Assembly: GCA_029237695.1 (NCBI GenBank)
Contig: CM055265.1
Span: forward strand, 112,084,773 to 112,148,772
DNA: 64,000 nucleotides
Source of the DNA: Conchocele bisecta
Taxonomy: Eukaryota; Mollusca; Bivalvia; Lucinida; Thyasiridae
Direction of reading: 5' to 3'
How positions within the stretch are numbered: position 1 is the stretch's first letter; every line of letters starts with the position of its first letter. The position numbers and the translations under genes were made by a program. Below, in pieces: positions 24,441 through 61,578 of the stretch. The notes beneath the pieces were generated by a model. The model was not told the DNA's origin. It worked only from the letters and a program-made list of their open reading frames with translations, and made no database searches.

Positions 24441-26330
24441 CGGATCTACCTCTGATATTGAAAGGCAAATCTTTTGAACAACTTCTTTTGTAAACAGTCG
24501 ACTATCGACGACAATGCATACACACTACCCGTACAAGCGGAAACCCATCAACCTTCAATCTCTATAATCACAATCTCTCATAGCGACGTCTGTGACGCAA
24601 CAAAGGCAATTGACCCATCCAAAGCTAGTGGTCCTGATCTTATCAGCCCAAGACTTCTACGGGAAACAGCTATCGTATTAACACTCTCTACATATGTTAT
24701 AACATTGATCCGCATGTCTCATTTCCCCTCTTCTTGGAAGCTAGCTAACGTCACACCAATCTTTAAAAAATAGAATCCATCAAAACAACAAAACTATACT
24801 GACCAATATCTCTTCTCAGTTGCATTGGTCAGTTGATAGAGCGCTGTATCCACAAGTATCTATGCAACTTTCTCATTTACAACAATAAGCTAACTTCATT
24901 CCAATCAGGCTTTATTAGACTAAGAGGATACTCTACTATCAACCATCTTACTTATGAATACAACGGCATTTGTAAGGCACTTGCATGATGACGTCTAGGA
25001 GGTCAGAACAGTCTTTTGTGACATCTCTAAAGATTTCGACGGAGTATGGCATCGCGGTCTTCCATACAGACTGTCTTCCCTTGGTATTCACGGTCCTCTT
25101 CATAAATGGTTTTCTTCCTATTTATCTAATCGACAGCAAAGGGTAATTTAGTCTAATTCCAGTTCGCAGCGGTCCTTGGTCCTCTTCTTTTTCTTATCTT
25201 CATAAACGATATCGCTGAGGAAATTAAATTAAACATTAGTCTTTACGCCGACGACACCAGTCTCTGCATTATCGTCGATGACCCTGTCCTTTCTTCAACT
25301 ATTCTACACGACGATCTTAACATTATCCACAAATGGTCAGAGAAGTGGCTCGTAAACTCCATCAAAAACTGAAACTATGGCTTTTTCCCGGAAATACAAC
25401 AAACCATAACGTTCTCCACCTATACTCATGATCATGAATGATGATTGACTAGATTCGGTCAAAGAACACAAACATCTTGGACTAACACTATCTGACGCCC
25501 CTAAGTGGAACTATCATATCCCACAGTGTATTAACAAAGCATGGCAACGCATAGGCATTTTGAGATCTCTAAAATTTCGTCTTAAAAGGTCTTCGCTGGA
25601 CGTACGTATTTCTGTTTATTCGTCCCCTCCTTGATTATGGCGATGTTGTCTGGGATAATTGCTCGAACCAGATGAAAGATGACCTGGAGGCTGTGCAAAC
25701 TGAAGCTGTCAGAATAGTGTCGGGCGCGACCAAACTTTGCAACATAGCCAGACTCTATTAGGAACTCAAGTGGGAAACATTGGCCGATAGGTGTAATAAA
25801 CCCAGACTAGTCCTTTTCTATACACTCTTAGAAATGCTGACGATATACCTCATATACATAATTGTCGCACACAACTGTACGCAAATTATATTAAATCATC
25901 ACCTCTGTTTAACGTCGTAAATAGGACAGGACACATTCTTCATACACGCCTTCGTCTTTCGTGTAGCGCACTTAATTTCGACCTTCATCGAAGATCTATT
26001 GCTGACACCCCGCACTGCACATGCATATGCGGATCCACTTTCTCTTGTATTGCAACAAGTATACACTTCAACGAAACACACATATTAACAACCTCCCATG
26101 TCCTTCCACAGCAGATACCCTTCTTCACGGGAATGAACATATGACATTCGAGGAAAATAGCTTCGTATTTCAATTTCAGCAATTGATGAGACAAGTGGGC
26201 AGATGTCCAGTACGCGCCACCATGTCAGCAGCGAGTGCACTAGCTATGCTTTACCCGCACTACCCTACCCCCCCCCCCCCCCCCGGCCCCCCCCCCCCCC
26301 CCGGGATCAAATTTCGCATACAATGGCTAT
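24440..26330 (+). pseudogene. Decayed CR1/Jockey-group LINE, reverse transcriptase region
   Basis: Remnant of a non-LTR retrotransposon ORF2. The open piece at 24474-24773 reads FNNFFCKQS..., KAIDPSKASGPDLISPRLL and SSWKLANVTPIFKK, the N-terminal RT blocks of CR1/Jockey-type elements. Past a stop, other frames continue with SFQSGF (about 24900), CDISKDFDGVWHRGL (RT motif A, about 25020-25060), FSSYLSNRQQRV (about 25110-25145) and ISLYADDTS (catalytic motif C, about 25235-25260). Later come EHKHLGLTLSDAPKWNYHI (about 25465-25520) and thumb/tail-like sequence, then a Cys-rich end (CTCICGS, about 26015-26035). Several stops and frameshifts break it, so it is dead. The 5' part (ORF1, endonuclease) is missing, as expected after 5' truncation. 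No poly-A tail is clear; a poly-C tract follows at 26266. Confidence 0.85.
26266..26304. repeat. Poly-C tract
   Basis: Two C-runs split by GG, ending GGGATCAAA, just left of element 1. Length may be unreliable. Confidence 0.8.
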
Positions 26331-26358
26331 AATTTAGATTACACTGATCATTCTATTA

Positions 26359-26515
26359 GTCCATGCATTAAACAGTTGAGGTTGGACAAAATTGTTGAAA
26401 AAGGTTTCTCAACTGATTATATCACATAATTGATAACTATAGGTTAAGAAAAAAAATAGTTTACCATAATTTTCTCTGGGCAACTGTCTGAAAGTAGGTC
26501 AAATCCAAGATGCAA
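26359..26515 (+). repeat. Left terminal inverted repeat of element 1
   Basis: Pairs with 30030-30197 on the opposite strand, with small indels. The inner end carries AAATCCAAGATG, the degenerate start of the subterminal motif AAGATGGCCGCC. Confidence 0.75.
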
Positions 26516-26871
26516 AATCCAAAATTGCCGAATATAGAAAATACAACCAAACAGTGTCACCTAAAATTCAAAATGGCCGCCAAAGTGCAAAATTATGACA
26601 TTTATGTCCCATTAGGGTCACTAATGAACATAAATATTGCTGAATGATTGTATAATGACAATGGGTTGGCAGATGTCATATACTAAGCATCAGTAATACA
26701 CTTAGTGTGTCTCAAACTACTATTTTTCTAGGGATATAGTGACATGTAAGAACTTAATGCAGGTGTACAAATGGCGGCTGTGTTTAAAAACTTAACAATT
26801 AAGCACATGTTATGTATGCTCTTACTATACTTAACTGATAGACTGATAGTGCACATACAAATCACGATATA

Positions 26872-27066
26872 TGTCACGGTCAATCTTAGTTTGATCAAAC
26901 GGTTTCACGAAACCAAGATTGGAACCAAGTTAACCTGAAAACATTTTGTCAAAGGAGACCATCAATCTGTCAGATTTGTGTCTGTTTGTAACAAGATTGA
27001 CTGTGACAACCACATTCAATCTGACTTACATATCTGTTTGATCAAACTAAGACTGACCGTGACAAC
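26872..27066. repeat. Inverted repeat inside element 1
   Basis: GTCACGGTCAATCTTAGTTT at the left against AAACTAAGACTGACCGTGAC at the right. Confidence 0.7.
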
Positions 27067-27156
27067 ATGCCCCATGTCTAGGTCACCAACAATGTGTCAG
27101 TCATCACAATACACATGTATGTATGTATGTCTACAACGAACGCCACTGATTTGGTA

Positions 27157-27939
27157 TTAGTATCTCCATGGAGAATATAAATGAGAATACCAGGCATTTG
27201 AATCATGACTTTCTCCATATGTACACGCTATTTCGTTACAGTGGCCACAAGCCAAAGAACATAAAAGTCCATTTTTCCTACACGAACATGTGTTTTTGTC
27301 ACACTTTCCACTACAATTACATTTAATAATCTGAAGTAGAGATATAGGAGCGGCAATTTGGTCCATTCTATGTGGCTTCAAACTTGGCCCATGTGGTGTT
27401 GTACGGAGGTCCCAACACCATTCGGTTGCCTCCATGGTGTTACCCTGCCAGACCTGTACCTGGTGATAAACCCGCTGGCTGTGGAACCTAGCAGCATCTG
27501 AGGTCGGTGGAAGTCGTTCAGGGGGCAAATAGCTGGCACTTGAAACAACCTTCTCCGACAATTTAGATACACGTTCATGATTCAAGTCAGAATCAGGCTT
27601 ACTGCCATATAGTGTCAGAAGGGCCTGATTCCAAGCTCTCTCAATGTATGTGTGACTAACTGCTGCCACCGAGAATGATTTTGCGAATTCTTGCAGACCA
27701 CGGTATCTGCCCATAGCCGAGATTTTTCCTATGCCATAGGGTATTGATGTAGTGTCACATCCCGACAATGCATGGATAAAGAGTAGGGAGTGGCTGAGTT
27801 CAGGATCTAAAGTCTCTTGCAAGACGGGTACATCAATTAGCTTTGTGCTAGTCTGAAGATAGATTGGTTCGTGTACAGTAGGCTTGAAGTGATGTTGCAA
27901 CAGAATCAGAAGGTCAGTAGCATCCCCTACAACAACCAT
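27157..27939 (-). pseudogene. C-terminal fragment of PIN/XPG-like, Cys-rich-tail transposon protein
   Basis: Open frame of 260 codons. Near its N-terminus it has VVVGDATDLLILLQHH, a beta-strand plus acidic pair as in PIN/XPG-type nuclease folds. Residues 50-75 carry HALSGCDTTSIPYGIGK, which fits the GCDT motif of the same domain. Residues about 140-175 carry LPPTSDAARFHSQRVYHQVQVW. Residues about 205-240 are Cys-rich: CNCSGKCDKNTCSC, then CSLACGHCNEIAC, a likely zinc-binding tail. This order is known to me from many uncharacterised multi-copy invertebrate proteins. No upstream part of the protein is visible before 27939, so this is the 3' remnant of a longer gene. It lies inside TIR element 1. 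Function as a transposition protein is inferred from location only. Confidence 0.7.
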
Positions 27940-28259
27940 CGGTTTTGTCCCAGCGAGCTCACAGCAAACACACGAGCGGATGTAGCTTCAAAAGTATACA
28001 TGTATATACATTTACTTTACACGTCATTGCATGACACAATGTCACTACAACTTTGTGGAGACCTCATGGCAAGAAATTACGTATACAATATGTACATACA
28101 TTCATGTGCGAATTCAACAATTGTAGCAGGGTTGTTCAAGACTTAGAACACTAAGATTCGTACATCACATTTGTGAAAGTAATCCATGCATTTACCATGA
28201 ATAAGACAAATTTTCATGACCAATAGGATTTTTCAAAAACAATGTAGGCCTATGCACGT

Positions 28260-28470
28260 GCCCCCCCCCCCCCCCCCCCACAGCTGTGCCCCACTATAAA
28301 AAATAATGGGCCTAGAAATGGCTAAGTCAACACCCACAAAAAAATGGCCAGGGGGGGGGGGTGGGGTCCTCTAATAGAGCAAAACAATTTTCGTCTCTCT
28401 GCAACAATAGTACCGCAAGAGTATGTGCACGGGTCACCACCCCCCCCCCACCCGAGGGGGGGGGGGTAAT
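28260..28470. repeat. Poly-C / poly-G cluster in element 1
   Basis: C-run at about 28261-28279, G-run at about 28350, then a C-run and G-run pair at 28440-28468 able to form a hairpin. Assembly here should be treated with care. Confidence 0.7.
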
Positions 28471-30029
28471 TTTATGTCTGCAACAATATTACACCAACCC
28501 AGCCCAGGCAGTCTTGTTTGTGCACGGAAATAGGTATCGCACGGATTTGGGGTCGTGTGTCATTGAGATGGCCATTTGGGAGGTGTCACACTTGGATATT
28601 CTCCAGGGCAATTGGTCAGAAGAAGCAACCTGACATGATCAAGTTATATGTCATTAATTATTTAACTTACCCAACATGTGGCATACTGAAATTTAAAATA
28701 TTGCCACAAAAAAAACTTGTGGTTGTTGTTTTTGTCATCGTTGTTGTTCATGGACATGGACTCCTGCGCTTAGTTTTCGCGGCACCAGGTACAAACAAAC
28801 TTGGCAAACTTGGTGACGGGTTGGATGCATACCGCAAATACAGAAATACCGAAAAATATCATATTATTAAGTCATTCAACTATTCGAGCAATGTGGATAT
28901 TTTTTTGTCGACAGCTGGGAAGGGTCCGGGCCTGGTGGACCCACCCCTGGATCCTCTCTTGTTCACCCAGAGCTCTGACTTATCACCACGTATACTGTAT
29001 TGTTTAGGAAACTTAAATAGTAAACTTGTTGCAAGAGTTGGTACCTCTACATACAATATTTGGTGAGTGATACGCCAACAGACATGGGGATGCTTTCCAA
29101 ATGAGTGGACTTTTTCGCTAAATTTGAGTAAAATATGTCCGTATTGAACATTAAATCAATGTTTAAAGTATTAAATCATGCTAAAAGAATATCAGTAACA
29201 TCTAAATAATCATAACAAATCCAAATGAACAAGATATGGGTACCTAATAATAGTTTACACTGTGAAACTACAATATCGTAAATTTAGCCATTTGGCACCC
29301 AGGCTAAAATCCAAAATGGCCGCTGCCGAGAAAACGTACTTGATTTGGAAATCCTACCCAAACTTTTTTTGAAGGTCTTGGCATACAGAACATGAAAATG
29401 CAAAGTTTTGCTCTAAAATAAAAATGTACACAAACTCCCACAGAGCCTACACTATTGATTATCACAGATATGATTACACAGGCATACTTCCAGCTATATA
29501 TGTAGTGCTGTCAGGTATAGTCTATTTAAAGATAGCAGCCACTGCAGGGAAAGTACCTACCAGATTCGGCTTCCAAATCAGAACAAGCAGAATGAGTGAT
29601 GACTAGAATAGGGAATATCTAAACATATGCCCTGATGGAGTGGACACATTATGTTATGGGCTGATTTTGAAAAACAAACATATGTAAATTGCACCACAAA
29701 CTGAGTTCAGTGGTATCTCATTGTATTCAAGTGTAATTATTAGTTTCTTATAGTTCATATTAAAACAGTATGGTTGTGTCCACCATTTGTGTGCATGTGT
29801 GTTATATGTGTTTAATAAACCACAAGTGTTTAACTATTTTGTGAAAATGACATCTGACAAGCTTTTCATTGTAAGTCGTTATACAAGTATCACAATTGTG
29901 TTCATATTTTGACAGCCATTTTGGCTTTTGGCGGCCATTTTGAATTGTTGGTGACCTTATGTGGCCAAGATAGTAGTCGATTGAATTCGTTTCATAGTTC
30001 TGGCGTATTCCTATTTTCTGCTATTTTGA

Positions 30030-30197
30030 CGGCGGCCATCTTGGATTTGACCTACTTTCAAACAGTTGCCCAGAGAAAATTTTGGTAAACTATTTTTTTT
30101 CTTAACGTATAGTTACCAAGGAGGTGATATCAGTTGAGAAACCTTTTTCAACAATTTTGTCCAACCTCAACCATTTTTCCTGCTTTAATTACCGGAC
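30030..30197 (-). repeat. Right terminal inverted repeat of element 1
   Basis: Inverted partner of 26359-26515. Ends in GGAC followed by TA. The motif GGCGGCCATCTT sits at its inner border (30031-30042). Confidence 0.75.
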
Positions 30198-30361
30198 TAT
30201 ATGTGCGTACTCCCTTGTTTATTACTGAACTTGTCGTTTTATAAATATACTACTATAAAATTCATATTCTACCAACAATCTACACATATTATTACCATCT
30301 ATTTGAAATATAAATGGTCAATTAATTGTTATTTCAGTCACAATTGACAATGAACTATATA

Positions 30362-30519
30362 GTCCAGGCTCCCTAATACAAGTCCGCATATACTTTTCGC
30401 GGCGCGATTTTTGACACTTGATTCTGGTAATATGACCCATAGGCTACGATAATAACCCAGGTAGACTTTCGAGATAGGCGACAAACGTCAATGAAGAGAG
30501 AAAATCCAAGATGGCCGCC
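30362..30519 (+). repeat. Left terminal inverted repeat of element 2
   Basis: Starts GTCCAGGCTCCC after a TA and ends at the first AAGATGGCCGCC (30508-30519). Pairs with 35883-36040. Confidence 0.8.
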
Positions 30520-30998
30520 TTTTTCACTCACAATACACTGGATGAGCCATAATTTCATATATAAAAGACATGTGGACATACTTTTGGTATCGGTTTTTCT
30601 TTACTAGAGTATATCCAACATATTGCAACTGTTTGTGTTACAAAAGACTCCTATTTGCAGCCACAAATACAAGATGGCCGCCGTTTTAAACAGGAAAAAC
30701 ACTTTGTCAGACATCAATTTATCTCTGCAAGGCATGCATACATCTAATCAGTATTTATTTTCACTATCTGTCAAATTCATAACACTCTGGGCACGTTTAT
30801 CCACAATCACTCGCGATATGCAAACAATAATCCAAGATGGCCGCTGTAATTATTAAGAATAACCTGTGTACGGCACACATGTATAGCTAAAATGACTACT
30901 GTAAAAGCTTTTTGCATATATTTGGAACATGTGTTTGGCATTGTTGCGACAATAATGCATTGCTACAATTCTGACACCTGTTTTTCAAAATGGCCGCC
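30508..30998 (+). repeat. Phased AAGATGGCCGCC motifs, left side of element 2
   Basis: Motif starts at 30508, 30671, 30834 and 30987 (the last is AAAATGGCCGCC), spaced 163, 163 and 153 bp, all in the same orientation. The sequence between them is only weakly alike, so this may be an old tandem repeat of about 160 bp in which only the motif is kept. The motif contains CCATCTTG on its complement, a YY1-like core. Confidence 0.7.
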
Positions 30999-31339
30999 AA
31001 ATTTCGACGATTTAAATCGCTCATATATATGAACTAAGAAGCAACTTTCCAATAAATAGTGAACACCCGGATATTTCAATAGGTAATACGAAAAATATAC
31101 ACCTTTAAATCATCTAATTTGGATGTAAGAACTTAAATCGAGAACAAAAAGAAAATTACACCATTTATTGTATTAAACAACCAACTGAATCGTAGCAGTT
31201 TATAATTACGTCGATAACATGTATGCATAATTGTGTCTGTTACACTATAAGTCATCGTTCAATTAAACACCTGTAAACGTTATGCAAGTCTTAACAATAC
31301 TATTCCAATTGTTTTCGGGTGAACAGCGCGATTGTGTTG

Positions 31340-31531
31340 TCACAGGTTTTGACAATCATTTGCTTTTTTGTGGCAAAATGACACACACTTAACGGCACTA
31401 GATCTGCCACCACAGTTACACGTTGTTAGCACGGATACAGGTAATCGTTTCAAGGACTTTTCTGGTTTCAGAGAAACATCTACATTAATCCAGCCAAAGT
31501 TGGTGGGATCAAGTGCGCTCATATCGTCCAA
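31340..31531 (-). pseudogene. Cys-rich C-terminal tail of the element 2 protein
   Basis: 63 codons ending with TCNCGGRSSAVKCVSFCHKK, a shortened relative of the Cys-rich tail in element 1 (CNCSGKCDKNTCSC...). Preceded by NFGWINVDVSLKP, matching the WCWD-type region of the sister. The tail stops close to the left subterminal repeats of the element. Confidence 0.55.
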
Positions 31532-31772
31532 AAGTGTGATTGCACCGCGAACTACAACGAATGATCGTGTTATATGTCCACGGACAACACTGGACGTTGG
31601 GGGAAGTTCATATATAGCCCTTATAGCAGTGTGTCTGGTATGGTACTGGAATCGTAACTCATCAAACGTTTACTCCGTTGTTTTTGACCTAGAGCCAGAC
31701 CATACTTGCACAAGATAACGCTCAGCCATCTGAATTTCATATTCGTCAATAATGTCACTCTCCGAAATTGGC

Positions 31773-32548
31773 TCAGTACGTTTCTGGGTGACTTATAACG
31801 GCACTATGCTTTGTACCTAATTCGCTCACTGAGTCATCGCCGGTCGTGATATGCGCTTTAACAAGAACTTGACAGAGCGCGGCACCTAACTTCCCGTATA
31901 ATATATGGAGTGGTATGAGTCGCCGTTTCGTACCTACACCATACTGTACCCTCAACTCTTTCATGTGTCTTTTCAAAATGTATTCCATGTATCGCAGCAA
32001 CAGAACGACATTGTCGGTGTCGTTCGAAATTACTATGACACGTTCACATCCTCTTTCAACTGTCCAATTGGTATGTGGAATGATACGAGTATCCGCTTCT
32101 TCCAGCCAGCTACTGAGTTCTGCTATGTCACCTGTGTGTCCTCCTTCGGGCTGCTCAAATAGCTGTGCGGGAAGAACTTCGCCATCCACAACCATTCCAC
32201 TCAGTACCAATGAATGTCTCTTATGTCACGAATGGCAACGTCTCGTACTAATATTTCCAACTTTGACTTATTCGAAGCCAAAGTCCAGAATTTTTCCATC
32301 TGCTGTGGTATTGACACTGTTTCGTGCATCTCAACACAACCAGTTGAACCTGCACGACGTAGTCTCTCGCATTCTTTTATCGACAACTCAGCATAACTGT
32401 CAAAGATGATATGAGTTTCGTCTGCCTGAGAAACACCACGGGCACCTGAAATCACCTTCTTTATGACCTCGCCAAAGTGATCATATGATGTTAAATTATG
32501 TACCTGGCAAACTCTTGACATGAAATTGATTATAATCGTGGTTTTCAA
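31773..32548 (-). pseudogene. PIN/XPG-like domain region of the element 2 protein
   Basis: 32201-32548 contains IIFDSYAELSIKECERLRRA. 31773-32210 contains WLEEADTRIIPHTNW, then RVIVISNDTDNVVLLLRYME, GTKRRLIPLHILYGKLGAAL and KAHITTGDDSVSELGTKHSA. The acidic residues in EEADTR, NDTD and GDD are placed as in PIN/XPG-type metal-dependent nucleases (the family norm at the last site is GCD; here it is GDD). The match to this fold is by eye. It is the same domain as in the element 1 fragment, where the last motif reads GCD. Confidence 0.65.
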
Positions 32549-32670
32549 TACAGATTGTCTTTGGAAATCATAGTCGTTGTCAGTGAAGTTCTGTAATCAG
32601 CGCACTTTTTGTTGGTTTAGTTGGCAAATCACCATCGAACAATGGACTGCATGGGAGAAGATCATAACTG

Positions 32671-33556
32671 TCATTGACATTCCTCGCTCCTTTGCCATTT
32701 CACTTTGGTAGATATGTCATCGATAGAGCCCAGTAGTGTAGCACGTGTACCTGTGTCAGCTGCGACATCAACCTTAGGAAGCTTCCGCTTTGATATGGTA
32801 TCGCTCAACTTCTTCGATTTCTCAACATATCGCTCGCGCCGAAATTCTCTGTAAGCGCTATGTCCGTTCTCTATGACGCCGAGCAAACGCATATTTGTAT
32901 CCTGGTGCACCACGCGTTTGGTGACGAAGTTGTGTAGTTGAACTAGTGTTACTGGAATGAGAAAAGGGTTTCCTCGGGACTGTATAAAATTAAGCAGACG
33001 CACAACATTTCTATCGAACAGCTCACCTTTCCGGCCGCTTAGCTCATGATGGATTGATGTTTCCATGTTTCCATGTGCTCCATGATGCGATCATTTGTCG
33101 GTGCACGAAATGTATTGGAGATGCCAAGAATTTCGTGGAAAAGCAACTGCCACTCAACAACTAATTCAGAGTTACGAGTTTGGCCGACAATGCCAACCTG
33201 GCTTTTGGATGTCCGTTGAATCGACTGTTCTAACTTCATATCTGGCGCTACAGCGCTTCCATCTCTGTCCTTTATCACAAACCGGCCACGCATGTATGAC
33301 CTGTACAAGTCAGGGTGCTCTACCAGGGTGCTCTCTCGAGGTAATGTACCACGAGCCATGCCGATATATAGTTTATGGCATCAAACTCCTGGAATATTGC
33401 CATGACCGAGTCAACAGTTGAGACGTGAAGTGGCCAATTCCCATCCCTATCCGCGACAATCAGGTGCTTTATCTGAGTTACAATGTTCTGAAATACTCCC
33501 CAGAATCCACACAACTCCGACTTGGCCTCACATTCTCTTACAAATCGCAGGAACAA
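32671..33556 (-). pseudogene. Middle blocks of the element 2 protein, frameshifted
   Basis: Three overlapping pieces. 33320-33556 is in the same frame as the central block and has FVRECEAKSELCGFWGVFQ and FQEFDAINYISAWLVVHYLE. 33039-33359 has EHPDLYRSYMRGRFVIKDRD, AVAPDMKLEQSIQRTSKS, GIVGQTRN and FHEILGISNTFR. 32671-33066 has HELSGRKGELFDRNVVRLLN and DISTKVKWQRSEE. The overlap at 33320-33359 shows a real frameshift inside the run YLERA...EHPDL, not an intron. Each step moves the frame by the same amount. Confidence 0.65.
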
Positions 33557-33589
33557 CTGCCGCAGATTGTCGGATACAGCTCGGCAAAC

Positions 33590-34876
33590 TTAGCAGATGA
33601 ATAACTGTGCTGTTTTCTTTTCAAAACACCTTTCAGCTGTACCACAGATTCCAAAAATGCAACAAGTTTCATGGCTAAGCCAGGACACCCTCCATGCTAG
33701 TGTATCCAATACTTCAGAGACAATTAGCATTCCCCGGAGTGACCGAACATAATGCCCACCTGACAATACTGACTGCAGTACACGTTTCCCAAACACCTCA
33801 GACTCAATGAGTGCATCTTCCATACCACTACCGGTAATATATTTTCCAGCACAACGCAGCAACACCTTGGCCATGTGGAACATTCCCATCATTTGATATA
33901 TGTCGTTGAAAACATCCGACTTCATAAAAATATCAGCGACTGTATGAAAAACTGCCTCATCACAGAAGACAGGAAGTCTTACCTGATCCAACTGAGCTCG
34001 AACACACTGAACAATTGTGAGAGCTTTTCTCACTGTGGCATAATCTGTAACTGGAGAGGGAATAACTGGAAGAAATCCTACCCGCATTATAGGCACTTTT
34101 GCTGTTGAAATTAGTGCATGTATACCACCCCAAGGAGGCAGACCACCCGTAGGACTATCTGGCAAACCACACCGGACCAAGGAGATCAGAAACTCGGAGT
34201 CACTAGCCTTCGTAACTGCAGAAGTGGACAGCGTTAAATCTGTGTTTTCTACTAGTTTGAAATTGGAAGGTAGACTTGGTCGCACGACCGGTTTGGTATG
34301 TTTGGGAACAATTTGGCAAGGAAGCGTTTTATTGACAGCACGGGACGATTTACTCAATGTTGTGCTCGATACCTGTGGTTTACTATGAGGGATATCGGAT
34401 ACATCCTGAAACAGTACCATAACGGTGTCATGCGAACTTTGGGTGCCTGATAATGAAGAATTGTCTGCGAAGTCCGCATTGTCTAGTGACCCTAGTGTGA
34501 AACCTTGTTTAGTGAACTGACTGGGAATGGGTGTACCTAGTGCTTTCGACGTTTGGATGGCATATGCCGATAAAAGGTTACGGGAACCCCTCACCTCCTT
34601 ATACACAGTCGATACACCGATGCGATTCATAGATGTCAAAAGCTCGCGACTTCGGCATTTACCGTACACAGTTTTACCTAACATGGCGTGAAGTGGGGTT
34701 TTCCGCGCCCCATGAAATAACTGAAAGTATAATATCTGAAATAGACAATGTAACTGAGTGTGATAATGCTTAACATCCCATTCTACATCTTGACTAGCAC
34801 CTACATCCCCACTGTCAGAATCAGGGTTACTACTCTCGTCATCAACATCGATGCCATCCTCATCCATTTGTAACAT
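33590..34876 (-). pseudogene. Central block of the element 2 protein
   Basis: The longest open frame in the window, 428 codons. Starts with an acidic stretch (MDEDGIDVDDESSNPDSDSG), then LFQILYFQLFHGARKTPLH, KCRSRELLTSMNRIGVS, an STHDTV-like SSHDTVMVLFQDV and a Ser/Pro linker. Residues about 230-400 hold the best conserved part: GGIHALISTAKVPIMRVGFL, PVTDYATVRKAL, LPVFCDEAVFHTVADI, MGMFHMAKVLLRCAGKYITG, SGMEDALIESEVFGKRVLQS and VLSGGHYVRSLRGMLIVSEV. I do not know the fold; a DDE-type transposase core is possible but unproved. The frame ends at TAA 33590-33592, yet the same frame goes on with matching family sequence. Confidence 0.7.
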
Positions 34877-35287
34877 TTATATTTTCAACAAACGAGATTT
34901 AATGATGTTAAACAACGATGCAAAGAAGGTCATGAGTGAGTCATGCATCGTTGTACCTTCCCATGATTTTCTTAATTCGTGGCTATCACAGAATTTTTCA
35001 TTGCGATCAAAATTTACTTGTTGCATTTCCTCACTCAGTATCTCCCCAGCGGCTTTCATTATATATAATGATTTTATCTTAGCTGCCAACTCATCTGTTG
35101 TAACATAAGAGGAAAATACCATCTCTGGTTTGTTTTTCTCATGTGATTGACAAAACTTTACATCATCACCATAATGTTCGATAAGTAAGCGCTTAACATT
35201 ATGATTATAAACTTGTACGGTTGTATCAAACCCCATCATGAAATATTTTAGTTCTGTCATTGTGAAACCATAACCCTTTTTAAGCAA
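34877..35287 (-). pseudogene. N-terminal block of the element 2 protein
   Basis: 136 codons. Contains YNHNVKRLLIEHYGDDVKFC, MVFSSYVTTDELAAKIKS, NEKFCDSHELRKSW and FFASLFNI, conserved-looking blocks at the start of this protein family. It ends at a TAA (34877-34879); the next piece begins with ATG directly after the stop in the same frame. The same frame continues upstream of the ATG across another stop at about 35297 (EQAI, stop, CIDPLLKKGYGF), so the true start is further upstream. Confidence 0.65.
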
Positions 35288-35719
35288 TGGATCAATACAT
35301 TATATAGCCTGTTCGAAAATAACATGTTTCGTAGATTTAGGTGGTTCGTCAGTTGTTTTATCGTCCTCGGATTGGGCTCGTACAAATCTATGTATGTACC
35401 GTTTTACACAGACCCTAAACACGTTTCACAGGACGGACAACTAATGTGAGAAGCAGAGAAGAATATATCAAATTTAGCAATGCTCAAAATTTATATAAAA
35501 TAACCTTCGTACGGCGGTTATTTAGAATATAAAATGACGCTCCTGGAAAACACTCGATCCCTATCTCGAGTCTTTGGCTGCATATGACACCCTTATGGAA
35601 ACCTAATATATTAAGAATGACTGAAACCCGACATCGCATCATAATGGATTCCAAACGTATGGCCATACGTCATTGAAACATGAAAATATAATATATTTAG
35701 AGATTTGTGTTAATAAAAT

Positions 35720-35894
35720 GGCGGCCATCTTGAAATTTCGATCATTTACGGTAAGCTAGTATGAATCAAACTTGCCAAAAAAGTCAGATAAGTAATCGTT
35801 GGTACGATTGCATACGGGTTTTGTATTTAAACACGTTTTACATATATAAAACATGCTGCTTCTATGCCTTCTTCCGCAATATGGCGGCCATCTT
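35720..35894 (-). repeat. Phased GGCGGCCATCTT motifs, right side of element 2
   Basis: Starts at 35720 and 35883, again 163 bp apart and in mirrored orientation relative to the left side. Confidence 0.7.
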
Positions 35895-36040
35895 GGATTT
35901 TGACTTCCCAACGTTTTTTGTCGCCTGTCTGAAAAGTCTACCTGAGTTTTTTTTAAAGTGGATATGTTATATTATTAGAAACAAGTGTCAAAAATCGCGC
36001 CGCAAAAAGTATATACGGACTTGTATTGGGGAGCCAGGAC
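35883..36040 (-). repeat. Right terminal inverted repeat of element 2
   Basis: Begins with GGCGGCCATCTT and ends GGAGCCAGGAC before TA. Inverted partner of 30362-30519. Confidence 0.8.
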
Positions 36041-36825
36041 TAATAGTCATAACATGCCCGACATGTTTATTGTACTTACGCTTATAGATCCTTATAGTGG
36101 AGAGGAATTCATATAAGCTTTCTTAAGCTTGTTTTCTAATCCACACCCTTTCTTTGTATCATAACATGTATTGTTCCTTACATGACTTATAATTTAATAA
36201 AATATTGTTTAAACTAAATAGCAGGTGCCCGTGACGTACAGTTCTTTAGGGTATAGCGGATCTTAGGGTATAGCGGATCGGTGTAGATTTGTATCAACAT
36301 ATTTTTGTATAATGTACATGTAAAATAAATAAAATATTACCGTTAGGAAGAGTGATCTATCCCCCACACAATGACATGTTTACTTTGATATAGCAGTTTC
36401 CTTGCCGGGCGTATAGCTTCAAGAAACACAATGACGTAACCGGAAGTTTACACCAGTTAAAGCGAAAGTAGGTTGCTCCAGAGTAATTTCACTAAAAATG
36501 TATAAACAGTTAGTTTGGAAAAAACAAACTCTGTGAATAATATGATGTACAATCATGTCCTCTATAACTGCAAAGAAGCTTGGTTCATAAATCACGCCAT
36601 GTCACTGAATACAGACGTCAATAATAACGCAACTGATTCCGGTAGTAGCGGATCGCCGATTTTGCGTATTTGCGGGGATCGTCTCAAAACAAAATATGAC
36701 CTGAAAACACTATAGCAAATGTATTTTTTAAAGCTATAAATGTTTTTTTGGAATTTTATATGTACCAAATAAAGTAAAATGTAACTGTGTTATTCTTTGC
36801 ATTTTTATTATTTTTTTACATTTTT

Positions 36826-40500: not shown

Positions 40501-41446
40501 ACATCAATCATTTTTAGCCAGGTTTTTTGAAAAAAAATCCAAGCTATTGGATTGGCGAAAGCCGGGCGGGCGGGCGGCGGGCGGCATCCACAATCAATGT
40601 TAATTAAGTTTTCGTGTTTGAGTCCATTTCTTTGTTACTGTACCACCTAGGACCACCAAACTTTCACAGCTTCATAATCAAAGGGTGCCCACCACATATT
40701 ACTATCCAACATGTTACTTTTTTTTTTAACTTGACCCATTTTTTCCGCGCAGTCGACTTAGCCAGTTTCAATGGTAAGTTTTCGCGTTTACAATGTTAAG
40801 TTTTCGTGTTTGAGTCCATTTCTTTGTTACTGTACCACCTAGGACCACGAAACTTTCACAGCTTCATAATCAAGGGGTGTCCACCACATATTACTATCCA
40901 ACATGTTACTTTTTTTTTAACTTGACCCATTTTTTCCGCGCAGTCGACTTAGCCATTTTCAATGTTAAGTTTTCGCCTTTACAATGTTAAGTTTTCGTGT
41001 TTGAGTCCATTTCTTTGTTACTGTACAACCTAGGACCACCAAACTTTCACAGCTTCATAATCAAGGGGTGCCCACCACATATTACTATCCAGCATGTTAT
41101 TTTTTTTTTAACTTGACCCATTTTTTCCGCGCAGTCGACTTAGCCATTTTCAATGTTAAGTTTTCGCGTTTACAATGTTAAGTTTTCGTGTTTGACTCCA
41201 TTTATTTGTTACTGTACCACCTAGGACCACCAAACTTTCACACCTTCATAATCAAGGGGTGCCCACCACATATTACTATCCAACATGTTACTTTTTAGCC
41301 AGGTTTTTTGAAAAAAAATCCAGGCTATTGGATTGGCGAAAGCCGGGCGGGTGGGGCGGGCGGGTTCTGGGCGGGCGGGGTGGCGGGCAGCGGGCGGCTG
41401 GAGTCCACAATCAATGTTAAGTTTTCGTGTTTGAGTCCATTTCTTT

Positions 41447-42875
41447 ATACCCCCCGCAACGAGTTGTGGGGGGGTATACTGGAGTCAGGTTGTCCGTCCG
41501 CCCATCCGTCCGTGCGTCCGTAAACTTTACAGTAAACTTAACATCAGAGAAATATTGTTATAACTTCTATTTGCTTCATCTAAAATGCTTGATATTTCAC
41601 ACATGCATTCCTGTAAGGCTCTACTACCATGCTGTGCCAAAACAACGACCGTCCAACCCCCGCAGATCCCAAGGTCAAGGTCAAATACTTAGTCTGTAAA
41701 CTTAACATCAGAGAAATATTGTTATAACTTCTATTTCCTTCATCTATCTAAAATGCTTAATATTTCACACATGCATTCCTGTAAGGCTCTACCACCATGC
41801 TGTGCCAAATCCACAACCGTCCAACCCCCGCAGATCCCAAGGTCAAATACTTAGTCTCTTTAGAAAACTTAACATCAGACAAATATTGTTCTAACTTCCA
41901 TTTCCTTCATCTAAAATGCTTAATATTTCACACATGCATTCCTGTAAGGCTCTACTACCATGCCGTGCCAAATCCACGACCGTCCAACCCCCGCTGATCC
42001 CAAGGTCAAGGTCAAATACTTAGTCTCTTTACAAAACTTAACATCAGAGAAATAAGTTATAACTTCTATTTCCTTCATTGAAAATTCTTATTATTTCACT
42101 TGTGCATTCCTCTAAGGTTGTACTATCATGCTGTGACAAATCTACGACTGTCCAACCCTGCTGATCCCAAGGTCAAGGTCACATACTTAGTCTCTTTACA
42201 AAACTTAAACATCAGAGAAATTATGTTTTAATTAACTTCTATTTCTTTCATTGAAAATTCTTAATATATTTCTTATGCTGTGACAAATCCCCACTGATCT
42301 CGAGGTCAACATCACATACATACCGTATAACCTCGAATTAACGCCCCCCTCCTAATAAACGCCCCCCCCCCCCCCCCCCCCCACCCCACCCCACCCCCCC
42401 CCAAATCCCCCCCCCAAATTAAAAAAATAATAAATAAAATTTACCAATGACCGCCAATTTCAAACACAAATAATCCTTAAATCCTTATTTGTGTTTGAAA
42501 TTGGCGTCCTTGGTAAAATTTTTAAATTATTATTTTTTTTAATGGCTAATAAACGCCCCCCCCCCCCCTTTTGTAAGATGTAAACGCCTCCGGGGGCGTT
42601 TAATTCGAGGTTATGCGGTAGTCTCTTTACAAAACTTAACATCAGAGAAATCGGTTATAACTTCTATTTCCTTGCTCGGATCTGCTTCACATTTCACACA
42701 CTCATTGCTCCAATGGACCTCTACCACCCGGTGACAAATTCACGTTCATGCCGCTTGCGCTAATCCCAGAGTCAAGGTCACAAGCCCACACACTTGGAAA
42801 TTTTTGCATATTTTAGGGGTACCTGGGCCCACGCGGGGGGTATTCCGTAAGCCTCGCTTACTGACCAATCTAGTT
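41447..42875 (+). mobile_element. Element A, copy 1: hairpin / CCGT tract / tandem units / 3' hairpin
   Basis: Starts ATACCCCCCGCAACGAGTTG, then GTGGGGGGGTATACTGG (hairpin) and GTCCGTCCGCCCATCCGTCC. It goes on with units of about 165 bp (AACATCAGAGAAATATTG, TTCACACATGCATTCCTG, CCGTCCAACCCCCGC). It ends with GGGGTACCTGGGCCCACGCG, GTAAGCCTCGCTTAC and CCAATCTAG. It splits a satellite S unit exactly: ...TCCATTTCTTT before and GTTACTGTACCACC after, so both borders are visible, with TT possibly duplicated. Confidence 0.85.
42323..42618. mobile_element. MITE with poly-C arms, inside element A
   Basis: TA-CCGTATAACCTCGAATTAAC and GTTTAATTCGAGGTTATGCGG-TA are inverted ends (the last quoted with one base beyond the TIR). 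Poly-C runs follow each end, and AATTTCAAACACAAATAA / TTATTTGTGTTTGAAATT lie in the centre. Confidence 0.8.
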
Positions 42876-45800
42876 GTTACTGTACCACCTAGGACCACCA
42901 AACTTTCACAGCTTCATAATCAAGGGGTGCCCACCACATATCACTATCCAACATGTTACTTTTTTTTTTTTAACTTGACCCATTTTTTCCGCGCAGTCGA
43001 CTTAGCCATTTTCAATGTTAAGTTTTTGCGTTTACAATGTTAAGTTTTCGTGTTTAAGTCCATTTCTTTGGTACTGTACCACCTAGGACCACCAAACTTT
43101 CACAGCTTCATAATCAAGGGGTGCCCACCACATATCACTATCCAACATGTTACTCTTTTTTTTAACTTGACCCATATTTTCCGCGTAGTCGACTTAGCCA
43201 TTTTCAATGTTAAGTTTTCGCGTTTACAATGTTAAGTTTTCGTGTTTAAGTCCATTTCTTTGGTACTGTACCACCTAGGACCACCAAACTTTCACAGCTT
43301 CATAATCAAGGGGTGCCCACCACATATCACTATCCAACATGTTACATTTTTTAGCCAGGTTTTTTGAAAAAAAATCATGGCTATTGGATTGGCGAAAGCC
43401 GGGCGGGCGGCGGGCGGGCGGCGTCCACAATCAATGTTAAGTTTTCGTGTTCGAGTCCATTTCTTTGTTACTGTACCACCTAGGACCACCAAACGTTCAC
43501 AGCTTCATAATCAAGGGGTGCCCACCACATATCACTATCCAACATGTTACTTTTTTTTAACTTGACCCATTTTTTCCGCGCAATCAATTAAGCCTAAGTT
43601 AAGCGTTTTCAATGTTAAGTTTCGTGTTTCAAGTCCAGGTTTCGTGTTTATGTCCATTTCTTGGTACTACACCTAGGACCACCAAACTTTCACAGCTTCA
43701 TAATCAAGGGGTGCCCACCACATATCACTATCCAACATGTTACTTTCTTTTGAACTTGACCCATTTTTTCCGCGCAGTCGACTTAGCCATTTTCAATGTT
43801 AACTTTTCGCGTTTACAATGTTAAGTTTTCGTGTTTACCAAACTTTCACAGCTTCATAACCAAGGGGTGCCTACCACATACAACTATCCAACATGTGACC
43901 ATTTTTTTACCTTCACCTATTATTTCTACGTAATTGACTTAGCCATTTTCAATGTTAACTTTTTAACGTACGTCTGGTTAAATTTTTTGGTTAAAACTTT
44001 TTTGTTGTACTATATCTCTGCAACTGCTTCGCCCATTACCTTGAAACTTCACATGGGTGTTTATCATCGTCCATACTTTCACTCTAACCCCCAACCGTGC
44101 GGCCCCTGTGCCCAATGTCAAGGTCAAATTACTTTGAATTTTTTTGTTAAAGTTTTTTAGTGTACTATATCTCTGCAACTGCTTCACCCATTACCTTGAT
44201 ACTTCACATGGGTGTTTATCATCATTGTCGCACCCGCTTGCGGAAGCAGCGCGTATCGTCAGCATTTTTGCATACGTCCGTCTGTCCGTACGTCCGTGTG
44301 TCCGGTTAAAGTTTTTTAAAGTTTTTTCGTTAAAGTTTTTCCATCTACTATATCTATTTTTTTTAGTGTCCATGCCTCGCCCCAAGGCGCGACATGCAGG
44401 CAACGGCCATCTAGTCTACAAAATGTGGGTAATTATGTTATCCAAGTGTCCATGCTTGGAAAAAACCTGGCCTTCGTGGCTTTGCCTGTTTCGTTTCTTG
44501 TTTTTAACTTGACCATTTTTTCCGCACAATCGACTTAGTCATTTTCAATGTTAAGTTTTCGCGTTTACAATGTTAAGTTTTCGTGTTTAAGTCCATTTCT
44601 TTGGTACTGTACCACCTAGGACCACCAACTTTCACAGCTTCATAATCAAGGGGTGCCACCACATATCACTATCCAAACATGTTACTTTTTTTTTTTTAAC
44701 TTGACCCATTTTTTCCGCGCAGTCGACTTAGCCATTTTCAATGTTAAGTTTTTGCGTTTACAATGTTAAGTTTTCGTGTTTAAGTCCATTTCTTTGGTAC
44801 TGTACCACCTAGGACCACCAAACTTTCACAGCTTCATAATCAAGGGGTGCCCACCACATATCACTATCCAACATGTTACTCTTTTTTTTAACTTGACCCA
44901 TATTTTCCGCGTAGTCGACTTAGCCATTTTCAATGTTAAGTTTTCGCGTTTACAATGTTAAGTTTTCGTGTTTAAGTCCATTTCTTTGGTACTGTACCAC
45001 CTAGGACCACCAAACTTTCACAGCTTCATAATCAAGGGGTGCCCACCACATATCACTATCCAACATGTTACATTTTTAGCCAGGTTTTTTAAAAAAAAAA
45101 TCATGGCTATTGGATTGGCGAAAGCCGGGCGGGCGGCGGGCGGCGTCCACAATCAATGTTAAGTTTTCGTGTTCGAGTCCATTTCTTTGTTACTGTACCA
45201 CCTAGGACCACCAAACGTTCACAGCTTCATAATCAAGGGGTGCCCACCACATATCACTATCCAACATGTTACTTTTTTTTTAACTTGACCCATTTTTTCC
45301 GCGCAATCAACTTAGCCGTTTTCAATGTTAAGTTTTCGCGTTTTCAATGTTAAGGTTTCGTGTTTAAGTCCATTTCTTTGGTACTGTACCACCTAGGACC
45401 ACAAAAACTTTCACAGCTTCATATCAGGGGTGCCCACCACATATCACTATCCAACATGTTACTTTCTTTTGAACTTGACCCATTTTATCCGCGCAGTCGA
45501 CTTAGCCATTTTCAATGTTAACTTTTCGCGTTTACAATGTTAAGTTTTCGTGTTTACCAAACTTTCACAGCTTCATAAACCAAGGGGTGCCTACCACATA
45601 CAACTATCCAACATTGTGACCATTTTTTTACCTTCACCTATTATTTCTACGTAATTGACTTAGCCATTTTCAACGTTAACTTTTTAACGTACGTCTGGTT
45701 AAATTTTTTGGTTAAAACTTTTTTGTTGTACTATATCTCTGCAACTGCTTCGCCCATTACCTTGAAACTTCACATGGGTGTTTATCATCGTCCATACTTT

Positions 45801-48800
45801 CACTCTAACCCCCAACCGTGCGGCCCCTGTGCCCAATGTCAAGGTCAAATTACTTTGAATTTTTTTGTTTAAGTTTTTTAGTGTACTATATCTCTGCAAC
45901 TGCTTCACCCATTACCTTGATACTTCACATGGGTGTTTATCATCATTGTCGCACCCGCTTGCGGAAAGCGCGATATCGTCAGCATTTTGGCATACGTCCG
46001 TCTGTCCGTACGTCCGTGTGTCCGGTTAAAGTTTTTTCGTTAAAGTTTTTCCATCTACTATATCTATTTTTTTAGTGTCCATGCCTCGCCCCAAGGCGCG
46101 ACATGCAGGCAACGGCCATCTAGTCTACAAAAAGTGGGTATAATTATCTTATCCAAGTGTCCATGCTTGGAAAAAACCTGGCCTTCGTGGCTTTGCCTCG
46201 TTTCTTGTTTTTAACTTGACCCATTTTTTCCGCACAATCGACTTAGCCATTTTCAATGTTAAGTTTTCGCGTTTACAATGTTAAGTTTTCGTGTTTAAGT
46301 CCATTTCTTTGGTACTGTACCACCTAGGACCACCAAACTTTCACAGCTTCATAATCAAGGGGTGCCCACCACATATCACTATCCAACATGTTACATTTTT
46401 AGCCAGGTTTTTTAAAAAAAAATCAAGGCTATTGGATTGGCGAAAGCCGGGCGGGCGGGCGGGCGGTGGGCGGCGGGCGGCGTCCACAATCAATGTTAAG
46501 TTTTCGTGTTCGAGTCCATTTCTTTGTTACTGTACCACCTAGGACCACCAAACGTTCACAGCTTCATAATCAAGGGGTGCCCACCACATATCACTATCCA
46601 ACATGTTACTTTTTTTTTAACTTGACCCATTTTTTCCGCGCAATCAACTTAGCCGTTTTCAATGTTAAGTTTTCGCGTTTTCAATGTTAAGGTTTCGTGT
46701 TTAAGTCCATTTCTTTGGTACTGTACCACCTAGGACCACCAAACTTTCACAGCTTCATAATCAAGGGGTGCCCACCACATATCACTATCCAACATGTTAC
46801 TTTCTTTTGAACTTGACCCATTTTTTCCGCGCAGTCGACTTAGCCATTTTCAATGTTAACTTTTCGCGTTTACAATGTTAAGTTTTCGTGTTTACCAAAC
46901 TTTCACAGCTTCATAACCAAGGGGTGCCTACCACATACAACTATCCAACATGTGACCATTTTTTTACCTTCACCTATTATTTCTACGTAATTGACTTAGC
47001 CATTTTCAACGTTAACTTTTTAACGTACGTCTGGTTAAATTTTTTGGTTAAAACTTTTTTGTTGTATCTCTGCATCTGCTTCGCCCATTACCTTGAAACT
47101 TCACATGGGTGTTTATCATCGTCCATACTTTCACTCTAACCCCCAACCGTGCGGCCCCTGTGCCCAATGTCAAGGTCAAATTACTTTGAATTTTTTTGTT
47201 AATGTTTTTTAGTGTACTATATCTCTGCAACTGCTTCACCCATTACCTTGATACTTCACATGGGTGTTTATCATCATTGTCGCACCGCTTGCGGAAAGCG
47301 CGATATCGTCAGCATTTTGGCATACGTCCGTCTGTCCGTACGTCCGTAGTGTGTGTGGTCCGGTTAAAGTTTTTTGGTTAAAGTTTTTCCATCTACTATA
47401 TCTATTTTTTTAGTGTCCATGCCTCGCCCCAAGGCGTGACATGCAGGCCACGGCCATCTAGTCTACAAAAAGTGGGTATAATTATGTTATCCATGTGTCT
47501 ATGCTTGGAAAAAACCTGGCCTTCGTGGCTTTGCCTCGTTTCTTGTTTTTAACTTGACCCATTTTTTTCCGCACAATCGACTTAGCCATTTTCAATGTTA
47601 AGTTTTCACGTTTTCAATGTTAAGTTTTCGTGTTTAAGTCCATTTCTTTGGTACTGTACCACCTAGGACCACCAAACTTTCACAGCTTCATAATCAAGGG
47701 GTGCCCACCACATATCACTATCCAACATGTTACTTTTTTAGCCAGGTTTTTTGAAAAAAAATCCAGTCTATTGGATTGGTGAAAGCCGCGCGGGTGGCGG
47801 CGGGCGGCGGGCAGGCATGGGCGGCGGGCGGCGTCCACAATCAATGTTAAGTTTTCGTGTTTGAGTCCATTTCTTTTGTTACTGTACCACCTAGGACACC
47901 AAACTTTCACCAGCTTCATAATCAAGGGGTGCCCACCACATATCACTATCCAACATGTTACTTGTTTTTTAACTTGACCATTTTTTCCGCGTAGTCGACT
48001 TAGCCATTTTCAATGTTTAAGTTTTCGCGTTTACAATGTTAAGTTTTTCGTGTTTAAGTCCATTTCTTTGGTACTGTACCACCTAGGACCACAAACTTTC
48101 ACAGCTTCATAATCAAGGGGTACTCACACATATCACTATCCAACATGTTACTTTTTTTTTGAACTTGACCCATTTTTTCCACGCAGTCGACTTAGCCATT
48201 TTCAATGTTAAGTTTTTGCGTTTACAAATGTTAAGTTTTCGTGTTTAAGTCATTTCTTTGGTACTGTACCACCTAGGACCACCAAACTTTCACAGCTTCA
48301 TAATCAAGGGGTGCCCACCACATATCACTATCCAACATGTTACTCTTTTTTTTAACTTGACCCATTTTTTCCGCGTAGTCGACTTAGCCATTTTCAATGT
48401 TAAGTTTTCGCGTTTACAATGTTAAGTTTTCGTGTTTAAGTCCATTTCTTTGGTACTGTACCACCTAGGACCACCAAACTTTCACAGCTTCATAATCAAG
48501 GGGTGCCCACCACATATCACTATCCAACATGTTACATTTTTAGCCAGGTTTTTTAAAAAAAAATCCAGGCTATTGGATTGGCGAAAGCCGGGCCGGTAGC
48601 GGGCGGTGCGGCGGGCGGTGGGTGGTGGTCGGGCGGGCTCCACAAATCAATGTTAAGTTTTCGTGTTTGAGTCCATTTCTTTGTACTGTACCACCTTAGG
48701 ACCACCAAACTTTCACAGCTTCATAAATCAAGGGGTGCCCACCACATATCACTATCCAACATGTTACTTTTTTTTTAACTTGACCCATTTTTTCCGCGTA

Positions 48801-49639
48801 GTCGACTTAGCCATTTTCAATGTTAAGTTTTCGCGTTTACAATGTTAAGTTTTCGTGTTTAAGTCCATTTCTTTGGTACTGTACCACCTAGGACCACCAA
48901 ACTTTCACAGCTTCATAATCAAGGGGTACTCACCACATATCACTATCCAACATGTTACTTTTTTTTTTAACTTCACCCACCGCGGCGGGCGGGGGCGGGC
49001 GGCGGGCGGCGTCCACAATCAATGTTAAGTTTTCGTGTTTGAGTCCATTTCTTTGTTACTGTACCACCTAGGACCACCAAACTTTCACAGCTTCATAATC
49101 AAGGGGTGCCCACCACATATCACTATCCAACATGTTACTTTTTTAGCCAGGTTTTTTGAAAAAAAATCCAGGCTATTGGATTGGCGAAAGCCGGCGATGC
49201 GGGCGGCGGCGTGCGGCGCGGCGGGCGGGCGGCGTCCACAATCAATGTTAAGTTTTTCGTGTTTGAGTCCATTTCTTTGTTTACTGTACCACCTAGAACC
49301 ACCAAACTTTCACAGCTTCATAATCAAGGGGTGCCCACCACATATCACTATCCAAACATGTTACTTTTTTTTTAACTTGACCCATTTTTTCCGCGTAGTC
49401 GACTTAGCCATTTTCAATGTTAAGTTTTCGCGTTTACAATGTTAAGTTTTCGTGTTTAAGTCCATTTCTTTGGTACTGTACCACCTAGGACCACCAAACT
49501 TTCACAGCTTCATAACCAAGGGGTGCCTACCACATACAACTATCCAACATGTGACCATTTTTTTTACCTTCACCTATTATTTTCACTAATTGACTTGACA
49601 TTTTCAACGTTAACTTTTTAATGTACGTCTGGTTAAAGT

Positions 49640-50670
49640 TTTTTGGTTAATACTTTTTCGTTATACTATATCTCTGCAACTGCTTCGCCCATTACCTTGA
49701 AACTTCACATGGGTGTTTATCATCATCCATATTTTCATTCTAACCCCCAACCGTGCGGCCCCTGTGCCCAATGTCAAGGTCAAATTACTTTGAATTTTTT
49801 TGTTAAAGTTTTTTCGTGTACTATATCTCTGCAACTGCTTCACCCAATACCTGGATACTTCACATGGGTGTTTATCATCATTGTCGCACCTGCTTGCGGA
49901 AAGCGCGACCCTGTGCCCAATGTCAAGGTCAAATTACTTTGAATTTTTTTGTGAAAGTTTTTTCGTGTACTATATCTCTGCAACTGCTTCACCCAATACC
50001 TTGATACTTCACATGGGTGTTTATCATCATTGTCGCACCTGCTTTCGGAAAGCGCGATCCTGTGCCCAATGTCAAGGTCAAATTACTTTGAATTTTTTTG
50101 TTAAAGTTTTTTCGTGTACTATATCTCTGCAACTGCTTCACCCAATACCTTGATACTTCACATGGGTGTTTATCATCATTGTCGCACTGCTTGCGGAAAG
50201 CAGCGATCCTGTACCCAATGTCAAGGTCAAATTACTTTGAATTTTTTGTTTGAAAGTTTTTTCGTTTTTTGTGTACTATATATCTCTGCAACTGCTTCAC
50301 CCAATACCTTGATACTTCACATGGGTGCTTATCATCATTAGTCGCACTGCTGCTGAAAGCGCGATCCTGTGCCCAATGTCAAGGTCAAATTACTTTGAAT
50401 TTTTTTGTTAAAGTTTTTTCGTGTACTATATCTCTGCTGCAACTGCTTCACCCAATACCTTGATACTTCACATGGGTGTTTATCATCATTGTCGCACCTG
50501 CTTGCGGAAAGTGCGATCCTGTGCCCTATGTCAAGTTCAAATTACTTTGAATTTTTTTGTTAAAGTTTTTTCGTGTACTATATCTCTGCAACTGCTTCAC
50601 CCAATACCTTGATACTTCACATGTGTGTTTATCATCATTGTCACACCTGCTTGCGGAAAGCGCGATATCG
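49640..50670 (+). repeat. T-module block of about 149-bp units
   Basis: Seven units with CTATATCTCTGCAACTGCTT, CTTCACATGGGTGTTTATCA and CCTGTGCCCAATGTCAAGGT. Small indels vary the spacing. Confidence 0.85.
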
Positions 50671-61489: not shown

Positions 61490-61578
61490 CATTTTGTGGT
61501 TGACTCCTGCAAGTCTGGGCCAAATAAATCAACTGTTTGTCTTGGTATTCTCACCCAAGCCATAATGTAAGGGTCTTT

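What the first reader, a model, noticed from the sequence alone, without database searches (positions are those of the whole stretch)
30362..36040. A bounded TIR element encoding a large uncharacterised PIN/XPG-like protein
About 158-bp inverted ends enclose a 4.1-kb coding region for one protein: conserved N-terminal and central blocks, an acidic nuclease-like domain (EEADTR, NDTD, GDD) and a Cys-rich tail. I know this protein pattern as frequent uncharacterised copies in cnidarian and mollusc genomes. Finding it inside clear TIRs suggests the family is a DNA transposon protein. Relation to Academ (proteins with XPG-like nucleases) is a hypothesis.
Basis: partly seen in the sequence, partly recalled or inferred. 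Interest (0 to 1): 0.85.

Follow-up and report, generated by a model that had tools for sequence, protein, structure and literature searches.

The report
Broken transposon encoding transposase plus FEN-nuclease
The stretch is a decayed 'jumping gene' whose single giant protein probably joins a transposase to a DNA flap-cutting nuclease; a second, distantly related element with the same DNA end signature lies beside it, so the protein family belongs to DNA transposons, most likely the known Academ kind.

The parts
30360..36042 (-). Element 1: 5683-bp DNA transposon, coding strand minus
30360..30519 (+). Element 1 left TIR, begins TAGTCC
   Evidence: 160 nt, 80.0% to the right arm, gapless
35883..36042 (-). 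Element 1 right TIR, ends GGACTA
30357..30359 (.). Element 1 target duplication ATA (left)
   Evidence: reading as TA with GTCC..GGAC ends not excluded
36043..36045 (.). Element 1 target duplication ATA (right)
30505..31002 (+). Four subterminal AAnATGGCCGC-type motifs, 148, 311, 474 and 627 bp from the left end (163-bp spacing for the first three)
35715..35901 (-). Two subterminal motif sites, 148 and 311 bp from the right end (same 163-bp spacing)
31346..35413 (-). Decayed coding region for the transposase-nuclease protein: six frame changes, five in-frame stops against P0001
33039..34876 (-). Part of the coding region that corresponds to the probable RNase H/DDE core (motifs LDNADF, FCDEAVFH, GMFH, APDMKLEQ)
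31758..32593 (-). Part that corresponds to the FEN/XPG nuclease domain (IINFMS, FDSY..K..ERLRR, EEADTR, NDTD, GDD)
31364..31440 (-). Remnant of the eight-cysteine tail (nine residues, three Cys, missing); coordinates approximate
26357..30199 (-). Element 2: 3843-bp TIR element of the same protein family, terminal hexamer TAGTCC..GGACTA
26357..26512 (+). Element 2 left TIR (best block 26375-26512, 92.8% to 30037-30171)
30037..30199 (-). Element 2 right TIR
26354..26356 (.). Element 2 target duplication TAT (left)
30200..30202 (.). Element 2 target duplication TAT (right)
27160..27987 (-). Element 2 open frame of 276 codons: later part of the nuclease domain (DATD, GCDT), LPPTS block and Cys tail (nine Cys; seven at the family spacing)

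Best explanation
Element 1 is a dead autonomous copy, and element 2 an internally rearranged or non-autonomous copy, of DNA transposons of the nuclease-encoding Academ type (AcademX). The transposase is one ~1600-aa polypeptide: N-terminal Cys/His clusters, an RNase H-fold (DDE) catalytic core with a large helical insertion, a complete FEN1/EXO1/XPG-type 5' nuclease, and an eight-cysteine zinc-type tail. Most likely working: the protein binds the long TIRs and the repeated AAGATGGCCGCC subterminal sites; the DDE core cuts and joins the transferred strands into AT-rich target DNA with a 3-bp stagger; the FEN-like domain cuts or trims the non-transferred, 5'-ended strand. Shown here: the ends, the duplications, the association of protein and TIRs in two elements, the conserved acidic residues, and the predicted nuclease fold of relatives. 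Inferred: the DDE identity of the core, DNA binding by the subterminal sites, and the division of labour between the two catalytic domains.
Against: No sequence of a catalogued Academ transposase was available, so membership rests on architecture and duplication length. PMC10294476 found Academ nearly restricted to bivalves among the molluscs it surveyed, whereas relatives here include a gastropod, Nucella. A TA duplication with GTCC..GGAC ends fits both elements as well. No second genomic copy or empty site was seen.
Confidence: 0.8

Rival explanations
1. A DNA transposon superfamily of its own, related to Academ in using an XPG/FEN nuclease but not filed there.
For: No relative in the listed rows is named Academ; Pfam and NCBIfam give no transposase match; relatives occur in a gastropod, where PMC10294476 hardly found Academ.
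Against: Nuclease plus 3-bp duplication is what PMC10045372 gives for AcademX; relatives in cnidarians fit an Academ entry suffixed NV (NV as Nematostella is recalled).
Confidence: 0.15
2. The FEN/XPG domain alone catalyses transposition and the upstream core is only a DNA-binding scaffold.
For: Only the nuclease fold is found with confidence in the PDB.
Against: The core's D93, D257 and E506 are essentially invariant and sit where DDE residues sit in the RNase H fold (layout recalled); Repbase counts Academ among DDD/E superfamilies (PMC9587614, passage).
Confidence: 0.08
3. A host repair gene (XPG family) or its pseudogene that happens to lie between unrelated inverted repeats.
For: A FEN/EXO1 fold is typical of host repair enzymes.
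Against: Two elements, same end hexamer and protein family; clusters with up to 138 member sequences; the fused core and Cys tail are not those of FEN1, EXO1 or XPG (recalled).
Confidence: 0.02
4. Target duplication is the dinucleotide TA with GTCC..GGAC ends, not 3 bp.
For: TA flanks GTCC..GGAC in both elements (flanks).
Against: The three bases outside TAGTCC..GGACTA match as ATA/ATA and TAT/TAT; chance about 4e-4 for both (from 0.020 per pair).
Confidence: 0.1

Closest known systems
AcademX lineage of the Academ DNA transposons
   Same: Encodes a nuclease and makes 3-4 bp duplications (PMC10045372, passage); counted as DDD/E (PMC9587614, passage); long elements in bivalves, mean 5565 bp (PMC10294476, passages); an entry Academ-1_NV_tp exists (PMC9004415, passage).
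   Different: No reference sequence could be compared; the TAGTCC ends and the 163-bp-spaced subterminal sites could not be checked against published Academ ends.
AcademH lineage
   Same: Sister lineage within Academ.
   Different: Helicase and 9-10 bp duplications; no helicase match in the 19 relatives scanned here.
FEN1 / EXO1 / XPG / XRN 5' nucleases
   Different: Embedded in a transposon protein; 6-17% identity in the aligned rows.
RAG1/Transib and other RNase H-fold transposases
   Same: Order of strands, position of D, D and E, long helical insertion (layout recalled); HzTransib is the only transposase among the 50 rows printed.
   Different: Match is not significant (E 0.26).
Bacterial Tn7 TnsA + TnsB (recalled)
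   Same: Would work like it: one nuclease for the 5' strand, one DDE enzyme for the 3' strand.
   Different: TnsA is a restriction-endonuclease fold and a separate protein; here one polypeptide with a FEN fold. Analogy, not membership.
Tesmin/TSO1-like CXC proteins (Pfam TCR) and Pfam DUF6589
   Same: The Cys tail reaches TCR's gathering score in P0197; DUF6589 reaches its own in 5 of 7 members scanned, in stretches that map to the helical insertion and E506 of the core.
   Different: These are domain names, not functions; animal tesmin proteins are not transposases (recalled).

Membership tests
AcademX (Academ superfamily) | Encodes a nuclease (XPG type is recalled; 'nuclease' is from PMC10045372) | tested here: met
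AcademX (Academ superfamily) | 3 or 4 bp target duplications | tested here: met
   ATA/ATA and TAT/TAT in 2 of 2 elements; TA reading not excluded
AcademX (Academ superfamily) | DDD/E transposase core | tested here: inconclusive
   Conserved D-D-E and RNase H-like order of elements; no significant transposase match in the PDB (barely tests this part)
AcademX (Academ superfamily) | No helicase (which marks AcademH) | tested here: met
   No helicase among the Pfam matches of 19 relatives, some partial
AcademX (Academ superfamily) | Cys8-type zinc tail (feature recalled, from no call) | tested here: met
   Eight conserved cysteine positions, 118-120 of 119-123 sequences
AcademX (Academ superfamily) | Sequence similarity to a catalogued Academ transposase | not testable with these tools
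   No Repbase sequence is on hand; the AcademH paper is not held
AcademH | 9-10 bp target duplications | tested here: not met
   3 bp in both elements
Kolobok | TTAA 4-bp target duplication (PMC9587614, passage) | tested here: not met
   Flanks are ATA and TAT

The most novel reading that the evidence does not exclude
A single-chain, two-nuclease transposase: the DDE core joins the 3' ends to target DNA while the built-in FEN/EXO1 domain recognises the resulting 5'-flap branch and cuts the non-transferred strand, as Tn7 does with two proteins. Its trimming could also be why the nuclease lineage leaves 3-4 bp duplications and the helicase lineage 9-10 bp.
Probability: 0.3. Interest if true: 0.75.

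Novelty: new member of a known kind. Interest (0 to 1): 0.5.

Why it matters
The family also offers an experimentally reachable case of a flap nuclease built into a transposon protein, which could show how the second DNA strand is cut and what sets duplication length in Academ elements.

Tried and rejected
Pfam and NCBIfam on window pieces and on relatives gave no XPG, PIN or transposase model. PDB sequence searches found nothing meaningful; only fold comparison did. Protein-guided scans of viral contigs and genome contigs confirmed no relative, so no independent locus with TIRs was obtained. TIR patterns gave one match for an 18-letter pattern in viral contigs (by my estimate a chance match, not followed) and none for a 27-letter pattern. 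A third TIR pair suggested by isolated motifs at 6853 and 15454 was not among the 25 longest of 81 inverted pairs shown; the other 56 were not seen. The first random-pair control held high values (27, 55, 102, 116); I took them for pairs that hit the elements themselves, did not check each, and reran it with the element ends excluded (maximum 44). Fold libraries: other transposase families did not appear for the core, which does not exclude them. Paper searches gave only passing mentions of Academ and nothing on this protein or DUF6589; PMC10799480, PMC8594854, PMC8290104, PMC6522560 and PMC12730594 were looked at by passages only and added nothing on the protein. I do not claim that the nuclease-DDE fusion is absent from print: the main paper on the Academ lineages (10.1186/s13100-020-00211-1) is not held.
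Full report
1. The element. The inverted ends are real: 30360-30519 and 35883-36042, 160 nt, 80.0% identical without gaps, far above shuffles (104 for ~800-bp arms against at most 21 in 200 shuffles) and above position-matched pairs (97 for 200-bp arms, against at most 44 of 2000). The first and last six bases are TAGTCC and GGACTA, and the outer neighbours are ATA on both sides. Element length is 5683 bp.

2. The coding region. On the minus strand, relatives align from 35413 to 31346. No intron is seen; the aligned pieces follow on each other apart from frame changes, with one short unaligned stretch (P0001 residues 1111-1155). The copy is dead: frames -1,-3,-2,-3,-1,-3,-1, five in-frame stops in the aligned pieces, an Asn in place of the first nuclease Asp, and a nine-residue gap in the Cys tail. 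The N-terminal ~210 residues of relatives, with two Cys/His clusters in most of the aligned ones, have no clear counterpart.

3. A second element. A search of the window with relatives found a further, much weaker match at 27951-27247 (178 of the 216 collected proteins hit element 2 at E up to 1e-3). It covers the last ~15% of the relatives (P0001 residues 1367-1600 of 1612) and lies in a 276-codon open frame inside its own inverted ends, 92.8% identical over the best 138-column block. These TIRs align with those of element 1 only over a short stretch around the shared motif, yet the element also begins TAGTCC, ends GGACTA and is flanked by TAT on both sides. Element 2 is 3843 bp and ends 160 bp before element 1 begins (154 bp between the two duplications). 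Its tail has nine Cys, seven of them at the family spacing.

4. Subterminal sites. The pattern AAnATGGC[CG]GC, both strands, matches 14 times in the window, 12 inside the two elements; two pairs are overlapping readings of a palindrome, so 10 of 12 distinct sites; 0.15 expected from 20 Markov sequences. In element 1 they stand 148, 311, 474 and 627 bp from the left end and 148 and 311 bp from the right end: the first steps are exactly 163 bp. Element 2 has them 213 bp from the left and 157 and 258 bp from the right, with one further in (876 bp). They resemble the YY1 motif (recalled, with one mismatch). I read them as transposase or host-factor binding sites; this is inference.

5. The protein family. 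Three searches gave 46, 415 and 53 proteins, overlapping (of the 415 the best 120 were listed). Sources that name an organism in the listed rows are animals (Nucella, Acipenser, Branchiostoma, Porites, Actinostola, Nymphon, Oculina, Eleginops, Ceutorhynchus, Cirrhinus) and one bacterial MAG (P0039, Sedimenticola, contig 2970 bases), which I take for contamination from an animal. None of the names shown says transposase; some say 'Tesmin/TSO1-like CXC domain-containing'. Scans of one genome for each of 84,980 prokaryote species and of viral contigs confirmed no relative, with the limited sensitivity of pattern scans. Many full-length relatives sit on contigs of about 5-7 kb, as expected if assemblies break at the ends of a ~5.5-kb repeat (inference).

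7. The core. In P0099 the order is strand 89-98 with D93-N-x-D96, strand 107-117, strand 216-223, helix 230-246, strand 252-256 followed by D257, helix, strand 278-282, H286, a helical stretch to 482, then helix 501-507 with D502 and E506. This is the layout of RNase H-fold transposases with a helical insertion (recalled), and D93, D257 and E506 are kept in 127/127, 132/132 and 131/132 sequences. Against this: Foldseek lists HzTransib only at E 0.26 and 1.2, and the whole-protein comparison barely tests this part (one search says so). I therefore call the DDE core probable, not shown. Pfam DUF6589 reaches its gathering score in 5 of 7 scanned members of the P0042 branch and is just below it in P0129 and P0134; its stretches map to P0099 205-553, in those five to the helical insertion and E506 but not to D257.

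8. Comparison with the known. PMC10045372 (passage) states that AcademX makes 3 or 4 bp duplications and AcademH 9 or 10 bp, and ties this to the nuclease and the helicase they encode. PMC9587614 (passage) lists Academ among the DDD/E superfamilies of Repbase. PMC10294476 (passages) reports 100 curated bivalve Academ elements, mean 5565 bp, and finds Academ nearly restricted to bivalves among molluscs; relatives here include the gastropod Nucella, which speaks mildly against simple identity or for incomplete detection there. PMC9004415 (passage) uses an entry Academ-1_NV_tp (NV presumably Nematostella, recalled); PMC8905726 (passage) lists Academ-1 in a clam genome table whose headings I did not see. 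The tested features fit AcademX; the untested one, sequence similarity to an Academ transposase, is the one that would close the case.

9. Mechanism. Shown: boundaries, duplications, two protein-TIR associations, conserved catalytic acids, predicted nuclease fold. Inferred: the DDE core cuts and joins the 3' ends; the FEN-like domain handles the 5' strand. After 3'-end joining, the uncut 5' strand would leave the element duplex as a 5' flap, the natural substrate of FEN enzymes (recalled); this makes the two-nuclease reading attractive and testable, but nothing here shows it.

Noticed in passing
window 40604-53659 and 60855-62840: Long satellite-like tandem arrays (periods ~191, ~149, ~167 bp; also ~137 bp at 56538-57440), with marked strand composition skew over ~42-54 kb.
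   Followed up: no
window 25011-25264 (+): Two short pieces match P0109, a protein with a reverse transcriptase domain (PF00078), E 8.6e-8: probably a retroelement fragment.
   Followed up: no
window 6853 and 15454: Isolated AAGATGGCCGCC-type motifs outside the two elements, with no matching inverted ends among the pairs shown; may be remnants or chance.
   Followed up: partly
relatives P0044, P0082, P0126, P0178: Public records name these likely transposases 'Tesmin/TSO1-like CXC domain-containing protein', probably a naming artefact from the Cys tail.
   Followed up: partly
relatives P0183, P0191, P0196, P0203, P0204: Pfam DUF6589 (function unknown) reaches its gathering score and overlaps the later part of the probable DDE core; no paper on DUF6589 was found in the library.
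   Followed up: partly
relative P0045 (sturgeon SRP72 record): A gene model joins a transposase fragment to SRP72 and other domains: likely a mis-annotated fusion.
   Followed up: no
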